The notes under the pieces: generated by a model
What the model saw: only the letters and a program-made list of their open reading frames with translations
Told to the model about the DNA's origin: nothing
The model's database searches: none
Shown here: positions 54,651-64,000 of the stretch, piece by piece
Layout of the letters: each line of letters opens with the position of its first letter
Numbering within the stretch: position 1 is the stretch's first letter
Program-made: the position numbers and the translations under genes
Origin: Selenomonas sp. TAMA-11512
Lineage (GTDB): Bacteria > Bacillota > Negativicutes > Selenomonadales > Selenomonadaceae
NCBI RefSeq assembly: GCF_037076525.1
Contig: NZ_AP029018.1
Span: 248,001 to 312,000, forward strand
Direction: 5' to 3'
DNA length: 64,000 bases

Positions 54651-56806
<2,156 letters not shown>

Positions 56807-57737: not shown

Positions 57738-58811
57738 TTGGATTTTGATGCGTTGAGGGAGATCTTTCGACAAAGTTTTTTGTCATCCTCCGTGAAGGTT
57801 GTGTTCTTGGAGAATGGAGAGGAGCTTTGGAAGAGCGTCTTGGAGAGATTGCCCTATGTGCCAACGAACTATATGCTAAGTATGCTGTCATACCAGGCCT
57901 CCTATATGAGATGCTTCTTGCAGGAACTCCAGAATTTCTCTGTTGTCCTTTTTGATAAGGATACTGCGATCGGTATATTTCCTTTGACACTCAACCGGAA
58001 GGAAGATGGGGGTGTCAAACTTTGTACCAATGAAGGGGCGGTTTATGCGCCCCTCTATATCGCGTCCACACCTGAAAAAATTATTCGACGATATGATTTG
58101 GCGTGTCTGGCTGCCGTTGATGCGTTGCGTTCCCATTTGCAGGGGCAGGATGAAGGCGGACTGTTGCCTTGGCAAGGGCAGATTAGTTTCTTGGAGAGCG
58201 AACTGTATGATCAGATGATGATATGGTATCGAATCTTATTAGAACGTGGTGGAGTGTCAAGCCTGTCGCATGAACTGTATGTGAATCTTTCTTTACCCTT
58301 TGATGAAATCCATAAGGGAATTCGCAGGCGCTATCGTACGCTCATCCATAAGGGGGATAAACTTTGGGATGTTAAGGTTCATACTGCCGTCACGCATGAT
58401 CTCTTTAACGAATTTCGATTATTGCATCATCGTGTGGCGGGACGTGTGACACGTTCTCTGGAGACTTGGAATGAGCAGGAGAAGGCGATTCAACGCGGAG
58501 AGAGCTTTTTGGTTACACTGTGCGATGCTTCGCAAGAGTTGATTGGCGGGGCATTGTATGCTATTTCCCGGGATGAGGGAACCTATGCTGTTGGTGCGTA
58601 CCGACGTGATCTCTTCGAACAGCCGGTTAGTCATGTTGCGCATTGGCGTGCGATTCGCTATATGAAGGAAAACGGGCTGAAGTGGTATCATATCGGCACA
58701 CGCTTCTATCCCAGTGACCTGTGCCGCCCAACCGAAAAAGAGCTGTCGATTGCGTATTTTAAAGAAGGCTTTGCGACAAATATGGTTTTTCATGTTTTTA
58801 TGAATCAGTAA
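57738..58811 (+). CDS. FemAB/GNAT-like acyltransferase
   Basis: A 357-residue protein resembling the FemAB or BioF2-like acetyltransferases, which move an acyl or aminoacyl group to a sugar or peptide. The middle reads ELYVNLSLPFDEIHKGIRRRYRTLIHKG, and the second half has RVAGRVTRSLETWN, then ELIGGALYAISRDEGTYAVGAYRR, the fold typical of lipid II:glycine transferases and related enzymes. In this cluster it may N-acylate the amino sugar in place of PseH, which is not seen. The start is TTG 57738 after GAGGAGGT; upstream in-frame ATGs overlap the previous gene. Function is inference. Confidence 0.7.
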   Translation: MDFDALREIFRQSFLSSSVKVVFLENGEELWKSVLERLPYVPTNYMLSMLSYQASYMRCFLQELQNFSVVLFDKDTAIGIFPLTLNRKEDGGVKLCTNEGAVYAPLYIASTPEKIIRRYDLACLAAVDALRSHLQGQDEGGLLPWQGQISFLESELYDQMMIWYRILLERGGVSSLSHELYVNLSLPFDEIHKGIRRRYRTLIHKGDKLWDVKVHTAVTHDLFNEFRLLHHRVAGRVTRSLETWNEQEKAIQRGESFLVTLCDASQELIGGALYAISRDEGTYAVGAYRRDLFEQPVSHVAHWRAIRYMKENGLKWYHIGTRFYPSDLCRPTEKELSIAYFKEGFATNMVFHVFMNQ

Positions 58812-58826
58812 TAGGAGATGATTGTT

Positions 58827-59537
58827 ATGTCGAGAGAAAAAGAAGTTGTGAAAATCTACTCGCGCCAATATGAAAAAAGAGGAATCGGTGCGCAGCGCTG
58901 GTATCCGAATACGGAACTGCTGTCGTTCTTAGGCAGTCATGGGTTTATGGGTAATCCCGAGGGAAATCGTGGCAAGAAAATTCTGGAGGTCGGCTGCGGC
59001 AGCGGGGCGAATCTTTGGATGCTCGCGAAAGAAGGCTTTGACGCTTACGGCGTGGACGGCAGCGAGGAAGCGATAAAACTTGCGGATAAACATCTGAGAG
59101 AAAAATGGAATGTGGAAGCGAACCTGTCGACGGGTTTCTTTCATGAATTGCCATATGAGAGTGAAACATTTGACATCGTTGTAGATGTGGTTAGCTTGAT
59201 GTGTCTCGATCTTGAAATGTCACGGCGTGTTTTGAGGGAAATTACAAGAGTATTAGCGGATGGGGGACTCTTCTATAGCTACCGTTTGTCCGACCGCAGC
59301 GCGATGTATATGAACAGCGGCGGACAGTTCGTTGACAGTGCAACCGTCAGTGACATTACGCGGGACGGAATGCCGCTCGCGCATAATGGTGCGATGAGCT
59401 TTTGGAGTCCTAACCGTGTTATGGAAGAGTATGGCGCATGCGGACTTTGCGTAGAGTCGATAGAGCGGTGTACAAGGACGTATCAAAATGGTCTGTTGGC
59501 GGTAGAATATCTTTCTATTGCAGCGAAGAAGGGCTGA
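58827..59537 (+). CDS. Class I SAM-dependent methyltransferase
   Basis: A 236-residue cytoplasmic methyltransferase with the SAM-binding motif ILEVGCGSGANLWML near residue 52, an acidic residue after strand two (YGVDGSEEA), and the LPYESETFDIVVDVVSLMC segment near 108. The substrate is probably a sugar or a small intermediate of the glycan, judging by position. ATG 58827 lies 10 bases after AGGAG; ATG 58818 touches that site. It is followed after 5 bases by the cytidylyltransferase gene. Confidence 0.87.
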   Translation: MSREKEVVKIYSRQYEKRGIGAQRWYPNTELLSFLGSHGFMGNPEGNRGKKILEVGCGSGANLWMLAKEGFDAYGVDGSEEAIKLADKHLREKWNVEANLSTGFFHELPYESETFDIVVDVVSLMCLDLEMSRRVLREITRVLADGGLFYSYRLSDRSAMYMNSGGQFVDSATVSDITRDGMPLAHNGAMSFWSPNRVMEEYGACGLCVESIERCTRTYQNGLLAVEYLSIAAKKG

Positions 59538-59542
59538 TATAG

Positions 59543-60295
59543 TTGGTGCTTGCCATATTACAAGCGCGGTGCTCCTCGCGCCGCTTGCCGAACAAGGCTT
59601 TAAAATCTCTGCTTGGCCGTCCGATGGTGCTGCGAGAGATGGAACGTCTCGCGCAAAGCCGACACATTGACAGGATTGTTCTCGCTACGAGCACAGATGA
59701 AAGCGATGATAATCTTGCCTCGACGGTCGAGTCTGCGGGGTATGCAATTTATCGCGGCAGCCTCGATGATGTTTTGAAGCGGTATTACACCTGTGCCGAG
59801 ACGTATGGTGCAGATCATATTGTTCGCGTGACGGGGGACTGCCCCTTGATTGACTGGTGCGTTGTTGATGATGTGATTGTACGGCACCTTGCCGAACAAA
59901 ATGACTATACGTATACGACAGAGCGATTTCCCGACGGTCTCGACACCGAAGTCATGACCTTTGCAGCACTTAAGCAAGCATATCGGGAGGCAAAATTGCC
60001 TTCTGAGCGGGAGCATGTTACGCTCTATTTTCGAAATAATCCGGAGTGTTTTCGTATTGGCAGTTTCGACAGCACGGAGGACTATGGGGATTTGCGCTGG
60101 ACAGTGGATGAGCCGCGCGACTTTGCCTTTGTTAAAGCCGTTTATGAACAACTTTATCCGGCGAATCATGATTTTACCATGCAGGACATTCTTGCGCTGC
60201 TGGATGAAAAGCCCGAGTTGCTGGAGATCAATCAGGGCATTTCTCGTAATGAAGGGCTGCAAAAATCGCTGGCGGAGGATGCGGCACTGTCATAA
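59543..60295 (+). CDS. spsF: Cytidylyltransferase of the SpsF/PseF type
   Basis: Expected to activate a nonulosonic acid with CMP. The 250-residue protein opens LAILQARCSSRRLPNKALKS, the pyrophosphorylase-like signature of the SpsF group (acylneuraminate cytidylyltransferase family). It also has RIVLATSTDESD near 44, RVTGDCPLID near 94 and DEPRDFAFV near 190. Bacillus SpsF belongs to an operon equivalent to PseF-PseG-PseI. The start is TTG 59543, five bases after the methyltransferase stop, with a weak ribosome site, so translation is probably coupled. Confidence 0.85.
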   Translation: MVLAILQARCSSRRLPNKALKSLLGRPMVLREMERLAQSRHIDRIVLATSTDESDDNLASTVESAGYAIYRGSLDDVLKRYYTCAETYGADHIVRVTGDCPLIDWCVVDDVIVRHLAEQNDYTYTTERFPDGLDTEVMTFAALKQAYREAKLPSEREHVTLYFRNNPECFRIGSFDSTEDYGDLRWTVDEPRDFAFVKAVYEQLYPANHDFTMQDILALLDEKPELLEINQGISRNEGLQKSLAEDAALS

Positions 60296-60333: not shown

Positions 60334-61626
60334 ATGAATATACAAGAGAGAAGTCTTAAAAAGTCGGACGAGCTGTGGGAACGGGCGCAGGATACTATTC
60401 TCTCGGGCTGCCAGCTCTACAGCAAGGGACCGGAGACGCATATCAAGGGCGTGTCCCCTATCTACATCGATCACGGTAAGGATGGACACGTTTGGGATCC
60501 GGACGGAAACGAATATATTGACTATGACATGGGGCTTGGTCCCATTCTGCTCGGCTATCAGTACAAAGCGGTGGATGATGCCGTTATGGCGCAGCTGCGC
60601 CGCGGTATGGGGTATTCCCTTGTCGCACCGGAGGAAGTGGAGTATGCCGAACTATGTGTAAAGCACATCCCCAGCGCGGGAAAAGTGCGCTTCCTCAAGA
60701 CGGGATCCTCGGCGACGGAGGCGGCTGTCCGCATTGCGCGCTGCTATACGGGGCGCAAACACATCGTGCGCGGAGAGTATCACGGCTGGCATGAATGGAC
60801 GACGGCGGCGGAGAACGTCCGTCAGGGCGGCATCCTTCCCGAGGTGCGTCAGTTCGTCCATAAATTTGATTATAATGACCTAGCGAAAGTCGAAGAGTAT
60901 TTTGAAACCTATCCGGGGGAAATCGCCGCTGTCATTACCGAGGCGGTTGAGGTCGAGCCGCCGAAAGAAGGCTTTCTCGATCAGTTGAAAGAACTCTGCC
61001 ATCGGAATGGGGCGCTGCTGATTTTCGATGAGGTTGTCAACGGCTTCCGCTTCTCGATCGGCGGGGCGCAGGCGTATTTTGGGGTGACCCCTGACCTCTC
61101 GACCTTTGGCAAGGCTGCAGCGAACGGAATGCCGCTCTCCATCGTCGCGGGACGCAAGGACATCATGGAGGAAGTGGATAAAAAGATCTTCATATCGACG
61201 ACCTTCGGCGGCGACTGCCTGTCTCTTGCTGCCGGTATTGCTGTGATGAAGGAACTCGAATCCGGTGAGGTCACAAAGGCAATCTGGGAGAAGGGGAAAT
61301 ACCTTCAGGATAATTTCCGCCGTCTTGCCAAGGACATTGACGTGCCGATTGATCTCAGCGGCTATCCTTGCCGCTTGAATCTGGAATACACGGACTATGA
61401 GGGCAAGAAGGACTGGCTCTACAACTCCATCTTCATGCAGGAAAGCGTCAAGCGAGGTGTCCTCCTCGGCTGGCACATCTTCCCCTGCTACTCGCATACG
61501 CAGGAAGATTTGGACTTTACGCTCAATGTATTCGAGGACGCGATGAAGGTCTATCGCGAAGCGTTGAAGAGCGGGCATCCAGAGACCTATATGGAAGGAC
61601 AGCCGCTGAAGATTGTTCTTGGGTGA
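60334..61626 (+). CDS. Class III aminotransferase (glutamate-1-semialdehyde aminomutase-like)
   Basis: PLP-dependent enzyme of 430 residues. It has the GSA-type motifs FLKTGSSATEAAVRIAR near residue 113, EYHGWHEW near 150, LIFDEVVNGFRF near 230 and the PLP lysine K260 in STFGKAAANG. True HemL would sit with haem genes; here the place in a sugar cluster suggests it acts on a keto-sugar or modifies the nonulosonic acid side chain. Class III enzymes of this sort recur next to SpsF and PseG homologues. ATG 60334 follows GAGGAGG. Confidence 0.85.
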   Translation: MNIQERSLKKSDELWERAQDTILSGCQLYSKGPETHIKGVSPIYIDHGKDGHVWDPDGNEYIDYDMGLGPILLGYQYKAVDDAVMAQLRRGMGYSLVAPEEVEYAELCVKHIPSAGKVRFLKTGSSATEAAVRIARCYTGRKHIVRGEYHGWHEWTTAAENVRQGGILPEVRQFVHKFDYNDLAKVEEYFETYPGEIAAVITEAVEVEPPKEGFLDQLKELCHRNGALLIFDEVVNGFRFSIGGAQAYFGVTPDLSTFGKAAANGMPLSIVAGRKDIMEEVDKKIFISTTFGGDCLSLAAGIAVMKELESGEVTKAIWEKGKYLQDNFRRLAKDIDVPIDLSGYPCRLNLEYTDYEGKKDWLYNSIFMQESVKRGVLLGWHIFPCYSHTQEDLDFTLNVFEDAMKVYREALKSGHPETYMEGQPLKIVLG

Positions 61627-62693
61627 TGCTGCGTATGGGAGAGGATCGGACGGACAAGAAGAACTACGTTGTTGCGATTCGCGTGGACTCGTCCGAGCAG
61701 ATAGGGAGCGGGCATCTGATGCGATGCCTGACATTGGCACAGAGACTTCGGAAAGACGGCGCGGACGTTCACTTCATTAGTCGTGATCTCGCGGGCAGCC
61801 TGCACCGACTTGTAACGGAGAGGGGCTTTTCCCTTCACCTTCTGCCGTGTCATGAGATAAATCCCGACCTTACGGGCTATGCGGCATGGCTTACCGTGCC
61901 GCAGGCAGTGGATGCAGAGGAAACAGGTGCGATTCTGGTCCGGATGCAGACTGTCGATCGTCTCATTGTGGACAGCTATGCGCTGGATGCTTCGTGGGAG
62001 CAGTTCATGCGCCCGCTCGTTCGTGAAATCTTTGTAATCGACGACCTTGCGAACCGGCTGCATGACTGTGATATCTTGCTTGACCAAAACTTCTATCGGA
62101 AGATGCAGCACCGCTATGACGGGCTTGTGCCAAAAAACTGCAGACTCCTGCTCGGCCCGCGCCATGCGCTTCTGCGTGAGGAGTTCTATACGGCGAGGGA
62201 AAAGATCGGTGCACGGGACGGAATCCTGCGCCGTATTCTTGTATTCTACGGTGGAAGTGACGCGACGCGCGAGACGGAGAAGGCGATTCACGCCCTTTTA
62301 CAGATTCAGCTGAACTCTGTCCATGTGGATGTCGTTGTCGGCGGGAACAATCCGCGGCGTGTGAAAATCGAAGCACTGTGTGTACAGCATGATTTTCTCC
62401 ACTATCATTGTCAAGTTTCCAATATGGCGGAATTGATGGCAAATGCTGACCTCTGCCTCGGCGCCGGCGGGACGACTACATGGGAGAGGTGCTTCCTCGG
62501 TCTGCCCGCTATTGTAACGGCTATTGCTGAGAATCAATTTGAGGTTTGTCGAGACTGTGCAGAGGTTAGGCTTATTTATTATATGGGTAGATGGGATAAC
62601 GTGACAGAGGAAAATATTGTACAAGCAGTGTCTAAGTTCTTGGATCCCGAAACACTCAAGGAGTTTCAACAGACTTGTAGTATCTCTGTATAA
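61626..62693 (+). CDS. pseG: PseG-type UDP-sugar hydrolase
   Basis: Removes UDP from UDP-2,4-diacetamido-2,4,6-trideoxy-beta-L-altropyranose in pseudaminic acid synthesis. The 355-residue GT-B fold protein has IRVDSSEQIGSGHLMRCL with the catalytic-type histidine H30, VIDDLANR near 138, YGGSDATRETEKA near 205 and CLGAGGTTTWERCFLGLPA near 277. It overlaps the aminotransferase stop by one base (TGATG); GTG 61623 and ATG 61635 are alternative starts. PseI, the condensing enzyme, is expected beyond the right edge. Confidence 0.92.
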   Translation: MLRMGEDRTDKKNYVVAIRVDSSEQIGSGHLMRCLTLAQRLRKDGADVHFISRDLAGSLHRLVTERGFSLHLLPCHEINPDLTGYAAWLTVPQAVDAEETGAILVRMQTVDRLIVDSYALDASWEQFMRPLVREIFVIDDLANRLHDCDILLDQNFYRKMQHRYDGLVPKNCRLLLGPRHALLREEFYTAREKIGARDGILRRILVFYGGSDATRETEKAIHALLQIQLNSVHVDVVVGGNNPRRVKIEALCVQHDFLHYHCQVSNMAELMANADLCLGAGGTTTWERCFLGLPAIVTAIAENQFEVCRDCAEVRLIYYMGRWDNVTEENIVQAVSKFLDPETLKEFQQTCSISV

Positions 62694-62717: not shown

Positions 62718-63605
62718 ATGTGGGAAAATGTCAGCGGCATTAAAAAGAATGAATATGGTTTTTTTCAACTTGACCCTATCCCTAAAGAGGAAGAATTGGA
62801 AAAACATTATAGGGAAAAATATTATCAAGAAACCAGATCCAATACATACGAACAGGAATATGATGCGGAAGAGTTGGAATATATTCGTGGAAATCTGAAA
62901 GAAACAGAGTATCTCCTAGAGCGTTTTGTACATGGGGGGGCAAAGACTTTTCTTGATATAGGTTGCGGTGAGGGATGGGCACTCGCCTATTTTCATGAGC
63001 ATGGATGGCTCGTGGAAGGCTGTGACTTTTCCTGTTATGGAATTCAAAAGCATAATAAGAGTATGCAGAAGTTCTTTGAGCAGGGAGACATTGAGTCATC
63101 TTGCGATAACCGTATTGCAGCGGGCAAGACGTATACGGTGGTTCATATGAACAATGTTCTTGAACATGTTATTGACCCGAAAACTGTTTTGCAAAAATGC
63201 GCGCAGCTTTTAGAGGAGGCTGGGATACTCTATATCGATGTGCCGAATGACTTCAATCCGCTGCAGGGATATCTTTATGAAGGTGGACTCATCAAAAAGG
63301 CAAAATGGATTGCTGAGATGGAGCACATTTCGTATTTTAATAAAGACGGTTTGGTGAATTTGGCAAGAACATGCGGTTTAGAGCCTAAGATTATTTTGGG
63401 AACAGAAATCATAGAGTTTTTTGGATTGAACCCGGATACAAATTATTATGACCATCCGGAAGTTGGGCGCAATTGTCACGTAGCAAGAAGACATTGGGAA
63501 AAGCTTCTACGAAACATTTCTTTGGATAAAAAGATTGCGCTTTCCAAAGCCTTGGGTGATATGGGGCTGGGTCGCGATTTAATTGCCGTATTTGGGAAAA
63601 GGTAA
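62718..63605 (+). CDS. Class I SAM-dependent methyltransferase
   Basis: A 295-residue methyltransferase with FLDIGCGEGWALAYF near residue 78, the following acidic GCDFS, and MNNVLEHVIDPKTVL near 144. The N-terminal 60 residues are charged and helical. Proteins of this type (methyltransf_23-like) are common in surface-sugar clusters and often modify a sugar at the chain end. The gene is AT-rich compared with the pseB-pseC region. AGGAGG precedes the ATG. Confidence 0.87.
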   Translation: MWENVSGIKKNEYGFFQLDPIPKEEELEKHYREKYYQETRSNTYEQEYDAEELEYIRGNLKETEYLLERFVHGGAKTFLDIGCGEGWALAYFHEHGWLVEGCDFSCYGIQKHNKSMQKFFEQGDIESSCDNRIAAGKTYTVVHMNNVLEHVIDPKTVLQKCAQLLEEAGILYIDVPNDFNPLQGYLYEGGLIKKAKWIAEMEHISYFNKDGLVNLARTCGLEPKIILGTEIIEFFGLNPDTNYYDHPEVGRNCHVARRHWEKLLRNISLDKKIALSKALGDMGLGRDLIAVFGKR

Positions 63606-63610
63606 ATGTA

Positions 63611-64000
63611 ATGAAAGATATTATTTTGACAGGAATTTCACGGGGACTGGGAAGACATTTATTCCTATCGCTGAACCGTCAAGAGGACATTCGTTTATTT
63701 TGCGTTGGAAGAAAGTTTTCTGATGAAAAAGAACATGGGGTGCAGTCTCTTATAGCATGGGATTTATCAGCGCCGGATACTATGCCGTCTGTGGATCGCC
63801 TGTTGTCGGCTGAAGCGGAATCGCTGATCTTTATCAATAATGCTGGCACAGTTGAGCCCATTGGAGAAATAGGCATGCTTTCTAATCAGCGGATCCAAGA
63901 GGCTGCGCAAATCAACTTTGTTTCGCCAATGCTCTTCTGCAATCAGCTTGTTGAGATTTGCCGGAGGCATCAGAAGAAGCTCAAGATTATCAATATATCC
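63611..64000 (+). CDS. Short-chain dehydrogenase/reductase, truncated by window edge
   Basis: The visible 130 codons start MKDIILTGISRGLGRHLFLSL, the Rossmann dinucleotide motif (TGxxxGxG), and reach FINNAGTVEPIGE, the NNAG motif of SDR enzymes near residue 76. The active-site YxxxK lies beyond the edge. It follows the methyltransferase by five bases, so it belongs to the cluster and probably reduces a keto intermediate of the sugar pathway. Confidence 0.88.
   Translation, partial: MKDIILTGISRGLGRHLFLSLNRQEDIRLFCVGRKFSDEKEHGVQSLIAWDLSAPDTMPSVDRLLSAEAESLIFINNAGTVEPIGEIGMLSNQRIQEAAQINFVSPMLFCNQLVEICRRHQKKLKIINIS

What the first reader, a model, noticed from the sequence alone, without database searches (positions are those of the whole stretch)
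57738..58811. FemAB-like acyltransferase as a candidate replacement for PseH
It lies between pseC and the cytidylyltransferase, where N-acetylation of the 4-amino group is needed. The fold family transfers acyl or aminoacyl groups to amines, so the sugar could carry an amino-acid or other acyl group instead of acetyl.
Basis: inference. Interest (0 to 1): 0.5.

Follow-up and report, generated by a model that had tools for sequence, protein, structure and literature searches.

The report
FemX-like transferase in pseudaminic-acid operon
A gene in a bacterial sugar-making operon encodes an enzyme built like those that move amino acids from transfer RNA, but comparison with related bacteria suggests it adds an extra decoration rather than replacing the missing acetylation enzyme.

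Summary
The gene is real: window 57738-58811 (+) encodes a 357-aa member of NCBIfam TIGR04421 (FemAB_IMCC1989), inside a tight pseudaminic-acid (Pse) operon running from pseB to pseI beyond the window end. No protein reaches the PseH cut-off anywhere in the genome. The inference 'it replaces PseH' is weakened by relatives. Three of the five FemAB-bearing clusters that could be read also carry a PseH-like GNAT. The cluster closest in gene content (L055: 11 shared proteins, 61-96% identical, also without PseH) has no FemAB at all. What the window and L055 share is a methyltransferase / short-chain dehydrogenase / metallophosphoesterase / ATP-grasp cassette, a better candidate for filling the PseH step. 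The predicted fold is a double GNAT closest to FemX, FemA and the aminoacyl-tRNA-dependent streptothricin synthases, with FemX's Phe-Lys motif conserved. Best reading: an accessory FemX-type aminoacyl/acyl transferase that decorates an amine of a Pse-like sugar. The amine and the donor are inferred. It is a new variant of a known kind.

The parts
57738..58811 (+). FemAB-like protein, TIGR04421 (357 aa); predicted double GNAT with F341-K342-E-G-F345 motif
54672..55655 (+). pseB, UDP-GlcNAc 4,6-dehydratase (inverting)
   Evidence: TIGR03589 551.8 bits
55652..56806 (+). pseC, aminotransferase that makes the 4-amino group
   Evidence: TIGR03588 552.5 bits
56822..57724 (+). aldo/keto reductase (AKR)
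   Evidence: PF00248; in L058 one 985-aa frame covers AKR, cytidylyltransferase and GSA-type aminotransferase
58818..59537 (+). SAM methyltransferase (MT1)
59543..60295 (+). cytidylyltransferase, CTP_transf_3, far from PseF
60334..61626 (+). class-III aminotransferase, glutamate-1-semialdehyde aminomutase-like (GSAAT), FGK lysine motif present
61623..62693 (+). pseG, UDP-sugar hydrolase, no C-terminal GNAT
   Evidence: TIGR03590 305.4 bits
62718..63605 (+). SAM methyltransferase (MT2), first gene of the cassette that sits in the place of the GNAT
63611..64000 (+). short-chain dehydrogenase (SDR), runs 288 bases past the window end; followed outside the window by metallophosphoesterase, ATP-grasp with PylC-like N-terminal domain, and pseI (L004 285-986, 1005-1940, 1994-3019)

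Best explanation
The protein is a FemX-type transferase (two GNAT-fold domains) that serves a variant Pse pathway as an optional decorating enzyme. It most likely takes an aminoacyl group from an aminoacyl-tRNA (inferred) and forms an amide with a free amine of the sugar or of its precursor (inferred), with Lys342 playing the part of FemX Lys305 (alignment shown, role inferred). It is not the general substitute for PseH. In this strain the step after PseC is more likely filled by the MT2-SDR-metallophosphoesterase-ATP-grasp cassette, whose ATP-grasp ligase could join a methylated acid to the 4-amino group (inferred). The FemAB acceptor could be a further amine, for instance one made by the GSAAT (present in all five readable FemAB clusters) together with AKR (present in four of them; in L082 the stretch read begins after that place), or an amine on the added acid.
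For: Fold: AlphaFold model pLDDT 84.0, pTM 0.84. Best matches by VIA-align are FemX and FemA (Z 18.0-20.4) and the aminoacyl-tRNA-dependent synthases Sba18/Sbb17, solved with streptothrisamine (Z 18.5-18.8). MprF/L-PGS follow at 15.4-16.9, while tandem GNATs described as acetyltransferases or AcCoA-bound come at 14.9 or less. Motif: F341-K342-E-G-F345 is invariant in 7 of 7 TIGR04421-type proteins and aligns with FK.GF of PF02388 proteins, where F, K, G and F are kept in 19 of 19 aligned (of 20 loci one, L099, did not pass my filter). The [QR]xxGx[GA] pattern of CoA-binding GNATs is absent from the window protein and from 5 of 7 FemAB proteins, and present in 13 of 14 cluster GNATs. Accessory role: GNAT present in 3 of 5 FemAB clusters and in 8 of 11 without FemAB (Fisher p 1.0). 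L055 lacks both FemAB and GNAT but keeps MT2-SDR-MPE-ATP-grasp. In L017 FemAB lies next to a Maf flagellin glycosyltransferase, in L082 one gene away from one. ATP-grasp has a PylC-like N-terminal domain. Shewanella sfmC, D and E encode a predicted 3-oxoacyl-ACP reductase, a methyltransferase and an ATP-grasp protein, and its flagellar sugar has one N-acetyl plus a 236-264 Da moiety that can be methylated (PMC3765264, passages).
Against: No reaction, donor or product was tested. By Foldseek E-value, tandem GNATs (7q3a 7.0e-11, 2wpw 7.8e-11) interleave with FemX (7.0e-12 to 1.1e-10) and rank above Sbb17 (3.6e-10), although their TM-scores are lower (0.42-0.48 against 0.54-0.61). L082 has FemAB and no GNAT, as a replacement would have it. 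L059 carries SDR-MPE-ATP-grasp together with a GNAT, so that cassette, without MT2, does not exclude PseH. The sequence alignment to FemABX is weak (probability 71%, pairwise E 3.7e-5), and phmmer and hmmsearch against the PDB found no FemX. Residues 340-342, which include Lys342, have pLDDT under 50 in the model. Readable FemAB clusters are few (5), and L017 and L082 were chosen because they carry FemAB. The CoA-loop pattern does occur, once and twice, in the FemAB of L017 and L082.
Confidence: 0.5

Rival explanations
1. One reading: in this strain the FemAB-like protein itself acylates the 4-amino group after PseC, in place of PseH, with acetyl, an amino acid or another acyl group.
For: No PseH above cut-off in the genome, no GNAT in the operon, and FemAB stands near pseC. 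The two PF13302 GNATs of the genome have counterparts in number in the other PseH-less genomes G431 and G532 (two each), so they look like housekeeping proteins. L082 also has FemAB without a GNAT, and its genome has no PseH match above 29.3 bits.
Against: L055 and L060 lack GNAT and FemAB, and their genomes have no PseH match above 25.6 and 30.1 bits. L051 lacks both too, but its genome has a 53.5-bit match on another contig, so it counts less. FemAB coexists with a PseH-like GNAT in L012, L013 and L017. Its place in the cluster is not fixed.
Confidence: 0.22
2. It is a FemAB-fold acyltransferase that uses acyl-CoA or acyl carrier protein, not aminoacyl-tRNA.
For: The nearest Pfam model is named Acetyltransf_6 (PF13480); tandem AcCoA GNATs share the fold at Z up to 14.9 and interleave with FemX in Foldseek E-value.
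Against: Aminoacyl-tRNA users score higher by Z and TM-score, the CoA-loop pattern is absent from the window protein, and the FemX Phe-Lys motif is kept.
Confidence: 0.25
3. It acts on another glycan or precursor made nearby and only shares the operon.
For: IMCC1989 (L016) carries the family without visible Pse pathway genes in the 11.5 kb read, in the company of a methyltransferase-like and an FAD-type protein.
Against: Five of the seven FemAB loci read lie inside a Pse- or nonulosonic-type cluster; in L016 FemAB is near a contig end and in L011 at one.
Confidence: 0.1

Closest known systems
TIGR04421 FemAB_IMCC1989 (NCBIfam hypothetical equivalog)
   Same: Near full-length match (residues 20-352) at the family cut-off
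   Different: The model carries no function; relatives elsewhere sit in other gene orders (L016, L017, L082), and L017 and L082 score 204.5 and 200.1, below the cut-off
FemX / FemA peptidoglycan aminoacyltransferases (PF02388)
   Same: Double GNAT fold (Z up to 20.4) and FK.GF motif
   Different: 11-13% identity, no PF02388 match in the genome, sugar-operon context instead of cell wall
Sbb17, Sba18 and BD-12 Orf11 (aminoacyl-tRNA-dependent, act on streptothrisamine)
   Same: Fold at Z 18.5-18.8 for Sbb17 and Sba18; [quoted passage not shown]
   Different: Antibiotic pathways; substrate of the window protein unknown
PseH (TIGR03585), UDP-4-amino-4,6-dideoxy-AltNAc N-acetyltransferase
   Same: Pathway context after PseC; GNAT superfamily
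   Different: Single GNAT of 156 model positions; no TIGR03585 match for the window protein at E 0.01
Clostridioides difficile type B flagellin genes CDR20291_0244-0245 (FemAB-like and ATP-grasp)
   Same: FemAB-like and ATP-grasp genes side by side in a locus for a peptidylamido-sugar on flagellin (PMC5207246, passages)
   Different: PF02388-type FemAB; the 0244 mutant could not be made; no Pse pathway is described for the locus in the passages seen
Shewanella oneidensis sfmABCDE
   Same: NeuB-type synthase gene with reductase, methyltransferase and ATP-grasp genes; mono-N-acetyl Pse-like sugar plus extra moiety (PMC3765264, passages)
   Different: Encodes a TPP enzyme; no FemAB in the operon as described

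Membership tests
TIGR04421 FemAB_IMCC1989 | Whole-protein score at or above the curated cut-off of 250 bits | tested here: met
   251 bits in hmmscan; 250.8 bits in the six-frame search; only just over
FemABX aminoacyltransferases | Two GNAT domains in FemX arrangement | tested here: met
   Z 18.0-20.4 to FemX/FemA over 288-303 residues, Foldseek probability 1.00
FemABX aminoacyltransferases | Active-site Phe-Lys (FemX Lys305) | tested here: met
   F341-K342 aligned to FK.GF of 19 PF02388 proteins, invariant in 7 of 7; alignment weak and local model confidence under 50 there
FemABX aminoacyltransferases | Sequence match to PF02388 | tested here: not met
   No PF02388 match at E 1 for the window protein and none in the genome at E 0.001
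FemABX aminoacyltransferases | Use of aminoacyl-tRNA as donor | not testable with these tools
   needs enzyme assay
PseH (TIGR03585) | Score above 93.1 bits | tested here: not met
   TIGR03585 not among matches of the window protein at E 0.01
PseH function (N4 acylation) | Replaces the GNAT across clusters (mutual exclusion) | tested here: not met
   GNAT also in 3 of 5 FemAB clusters; FemAB in 2 of 5 clusters without GNAT; 16 clusters complete among 34 targets searched
PseH function (N4 acylation) | Acylates UDP-4-amino-4,6-dideoxy-AltNAc | not testable with these tools
   needs enzyme assay

The most novel reading that the evidence does not exclude
The operon makes a nonulosonic acid with a third nitrogen: AKR and the aminomutase-like aminotransferase, coupled to the cytidylyltransferase (all three in one frame in L058, two of them in L049), put an amine on a former hydroxyl. 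The FemX-like enzyme then loads it with an amino acid from tRNA, linking the translation machinery's charged tRNA pool to surface sugar decoration, while the N7 position carries a methylated acid joined by the ATP-grasp ligase.
Probability: 0.13. Interest if true: 0.72.

Novelty: new variant of a known kind. Interest (0 to 1): 0.42.

Why it matters
Bacterial sialic-acid-like sugars vary largely in the groups hung on their amines (general knowledge), and the enzyme behind many of those groups is not established. A FemX-type enzyme in such an operon is a concrete, testable candidate for aminoacyl-substituted sugars. A clostridial flagellar legionaminic acid named Leg5GluNMe7Ac is mentioned in PMC13317340 (passage); I recall that it bears an N-methyl-glutamyl group. 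The comparison also suggests that the PseH step in this bacterial family is filled in several ways (GNAT, formyltransferase-like with LmbE-like genes, ATP-grasp cassette), so pathway predictions from gene names alone can mislead.

Tried and rejected
PseH elsewhere in the genome: two weak GNATs only (23.1 and 19.4 bits). PF13302 finds the same two places. They were set aside as likely housekeeping because G431 and G532 also show two such GNATs each (G439 shows three); orthology was not tested by a tree.

A solved relative by sequence: phmmer and a profile of six proteins against the PDB gave nothing meaningful. Plasmids and phages: no match at E 1e-5. The first scan of genome contigs with the single protein gave no relative; the second, with an alignment, gave five loci.

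A link to flagellin in this strain: no Maf (PF01973) match in the own genome, so attachment by Maf, as the neighbourhoods of L017 and L082 suggest for them, is not supported here; the carrier remains unknown.

Dropped rows: L011 (FemAB at a contig end) and L016 (no Pse genes in the stretch read) were left out of the cluster count. L058 (GSAAT, GNAT, PseI but no PseG match) was set aside; adding it would make GNAT 12 of 17. Of 40 PseC matches in the family search, only the 32 over the cut-off were read; the 8 below it were not fetched. Several of the fetched stretches end at contig ends (L061, L065, L067, L071, L072, L075 among them), so a missing gene there may be a cut. My GNAT profile contained most of the cluster GNATs as seeds, L017's among them, so those matches are partly by construction; TIGR03585 gives L017's domain 38.6 bits and L012's and L013's 51.0 and 43.1.

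L082 as a Pse cluster: its PseG is over the cut-off (253.5), but its synthase scores 344.2 to NeuB and 248.2 to PseI, both below their cut-offs, and PseC was not seen in the stretch, so its sugar may be another nonulosonic acid.

Literature: searches for FemAB with pseudaminic acid (2 papers, neither on this enzyme in the passages seen), TIGR04421 (none) and FemX with pseudaminic (1 review). They cover only open-licence PMC papers. The 450.2 Da Treponema denticola flagellin glycan is confirmed only as existing (PMC9481697, passage); that it bears a long N7 acyl group is recalled, not read.

Full report
What is there. The window ORF 57738-58811 is intact, starts at a TTG with an AGGAGGTG sequence just upstream, and matches TIGR04421 FemAB_IMCC1989 at its cut-off (251 against 250 bits) and PF13480. 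The operon reads pseB, pseC, AKR, FemAB, MT1, cytidylyltransferase, GSAAT, pseG, MT2, SDR, metallophosphoesterase, ATP-grasp, pseI, with gaps of -4 to 53 bases. An MBOAT gene follows 100 bases after pseI, then a GDSL/SGNH-like gene (PF13472, 30.7 bits, just below its cut-off of 32.9).

Is pseH missing? By the curated model, yes: the best TIGR03585 match in the genome is 23.1 bits, cut-off 93.1. But TIGR03585 is a strict yardstick in this family of bacteria. In L076 a textbook set (PseB, PseC, PseF at 306.2 bits, PseG, PseI) comes with a GNAT of only 52.7 bits, so a GNAT at about 39-58 bits in such a cluster is most likely the local PseH. The window operon has no such GNAT.

The comparison. TIGR04421 is rare: 1 of 398 genomes across the phylum, 4 of 189 in the family, 3 of 274 with any match in the class of IMCC1989, one of them with stops inside. 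I read 34 targets with profiles built here: the own cluster, three other FemAB clusters (L012, L013, L017), one more from the class of IMCC1989 (L082), and 29 PseC loci of the family. In 16 of 34 GSAAT, PseG and PseI were all found. A PseH-like GNAT is in 11 of 16 (not in OWN, L051, L055, L060, L082). FemAB is in 5 of 16 (OWN, L012, L013, L017, L082), and a GNAT accompanies it in 3 of these 5. FemAB is thus not needed when the GNAT is gone (L055, L060; L051 is less clean, as its genome has a 53.5-bit PseH match on another contig) and not excluded when it is there. Fisher p is 1.0, on few and not independent clusters, and two clusters (L017, L082) were picked for carrying FemAB.

The best natural control is L055 (genome G431), the cluster closest in gene content. 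Eleven shared proteins are 61-96% identical to the window's, the MT2-SDR-metallophosphoesterase-ATP-grasp-PseI tail is the same, no FemAB or trace of one is found (tblastn at E 10 gives only matches of 38 residues or fewer with E 4 or more), and the only PseH matches in the genome are two weak ones elsewhere (25.6 and 21.3 bits). In L055 and L053 the slot after AKR holds another methyltransferase. So the absence of PseH goes with the tail cassette here, not with FemAB. In L051 and L060 two formyltransferase-like genes and an LmbE-type gene fill that place. L059 has SDR-MPE-ATP-grasp together with a GNAT, which speaks against a simple swap, though it lacks MT2.

A precedent for the tail cassette is Shewanella oneidensis: sfmC-E encode a predicted 3-oxoacyl-ACP reductase, a methyltransferase and an ATP-grasp protein in one operon with a NeuB-type synthase. 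The flagellar sugar there has a single N-acetyl and a further 236, 250 or 264 Da moiety with extra methyls (PMC3765264, abstract and passages). The window ATP-grasp has a PylC-like N-terminal domain. That such ligases join a carboxylic acid to an amine is general knowledge; the link to the 4-amino group here is inference.

What the protein is like. The AlphaFold model from a six-sequence alignment has pLDDT 84.0. Against solved structures, VIA-align matches FemX and FemA best (Z 18.0-20.4, 288-303 residues, rmsd 4.0-4.6 A), together with the aminoacyl-tRNA-dependent synthases Sba18 and Sbb17 (Z 18.5-18.8), then an uncharacterised protein (2hqy, 17.2) and MprF/L-PGS (15.4-16.9). Tandem GNATs described as acetyltransferases or AcCoA-bound come at 14.9 or less. 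Foldseek separates them less: by E-value two tandem GNATs fall among the FemX entries, though with lower TM-scores. A shared fold does not prove a donor. Seven homologues share 38 invariant residues, among them F341, K342, E343, G344 and F345. A profile alignment with 19 PF02388 proteins lays this on their FK.GF (probability 71%). [quoted passage not shown] It also describes Orf11, which converts streptothrisamine to glycylthricin with Gly-tRNA; [quoted passage not shown] The CoA-loop pattern [QR]xxGx[GA] is missing from the window protein and 4 of the 6 other FemAB proteins, while 13 of 14 cluster GNATs have it.

What it may act on. FemAB sits after AKR (window, L013), between GSAAT and pseG (L012), after pseI (L017) or at the end of the cluster (L082). 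In L017 it lies beside a Maf glycosyltransferase and in L082 one gene away from one, with fliD further on, so the decorated sugar there probably ends on flagellin; the window's own genome has no PF01973 match. GSAAT is present in all five readable clusters with FemAB, AKR in four (the stretch of L082 starts inside the cytidylyltransferase). AKR, cytidylyltransferase and GSAAT lie in one 985-aa frame in L058, and the last two in one 707-aa frame in L049. This suggests a functional unit that could add another amine, a natural target for a FemX-like enzyme; it is inference.

Known comparisons. The C. difficile type B locus has a FemAB-like gene next to an ATP-grasp gene. The ATP-grasp mutant lacks the terminal peptidylamido-sugar, and the FemAB-like mutant could not be made (PMC5207246, passages). 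A clostridial legionaminic acid named Leg5GluNMe7Ac is mentioned in PMC13317340 (passage); that it bears an N-methyl-glutamyl group is recalled. If so, aminoacylated sugars of this class are not new in themselves; the enzyme for them would be.

Verdict. I file it as a new variant of a known kind, with interest 0.42.

Noticed in passing
L058 8884-11841 (-); L049 5034-7157 (+): AKR, cytidylyltransferase and aminomutase-like aminotransferase lie in one 985-aa frame in L058, and the last two in one 707-aa frame in L049, which suggests one functional module of unknown product.
   Followed up: partly
window 62718-64000 and on to L004 1940; L055 8922-12144; L059 8230-10688: Cassette of methyltransferase, short-chain dehydrogenase, metallophosphoesterase and ATP-grasp with PylC-like N-terminal domain between pseG and pseI, resembling Shewanella sfm genes; L059 lacks the methyltransferase but has a GNAT.
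   Followed up: partly
L051 9517-11513; L060 8548-10567; also L013, L054, L071, L073: Formyltransferase-like and LmbE-type deacetylase-like genes recur near pseI; in L051 and L060 they stand where the PseH-like GNAT is in other clusters.
   Followed up: no
L004 3120-5728: MBOAT O-acyltransferase (PF03062) and a GDSL/SGNH-like gene (PF13472, just below cut-off) directly after pseI, a possible O-acylation pair.
   Followed up: no
L013 9422-10589: PseG is split into two overlapping frames in this metagenome-assembled genome, either a frameshift in the assembly or a broken gene.
   Followed up: no
L013 7859-9316 and 13547-13978: A B12-binding radical SAM-type protein inside the cluster and a partial second copy (78% identical) after pseI.
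   Followed up: no
L082 4554-10564 and L016 6867-9957: In IMCC1989 and a genome of its class the FemAB gene comes after an FAD-type protein, a methyltransferase-like protein (34% identical between the two) and a protein of 314-326 aa (no Pfam match in L082); L082 also has a fliD gene and a Maf protein nearby.
   Followed up: partly
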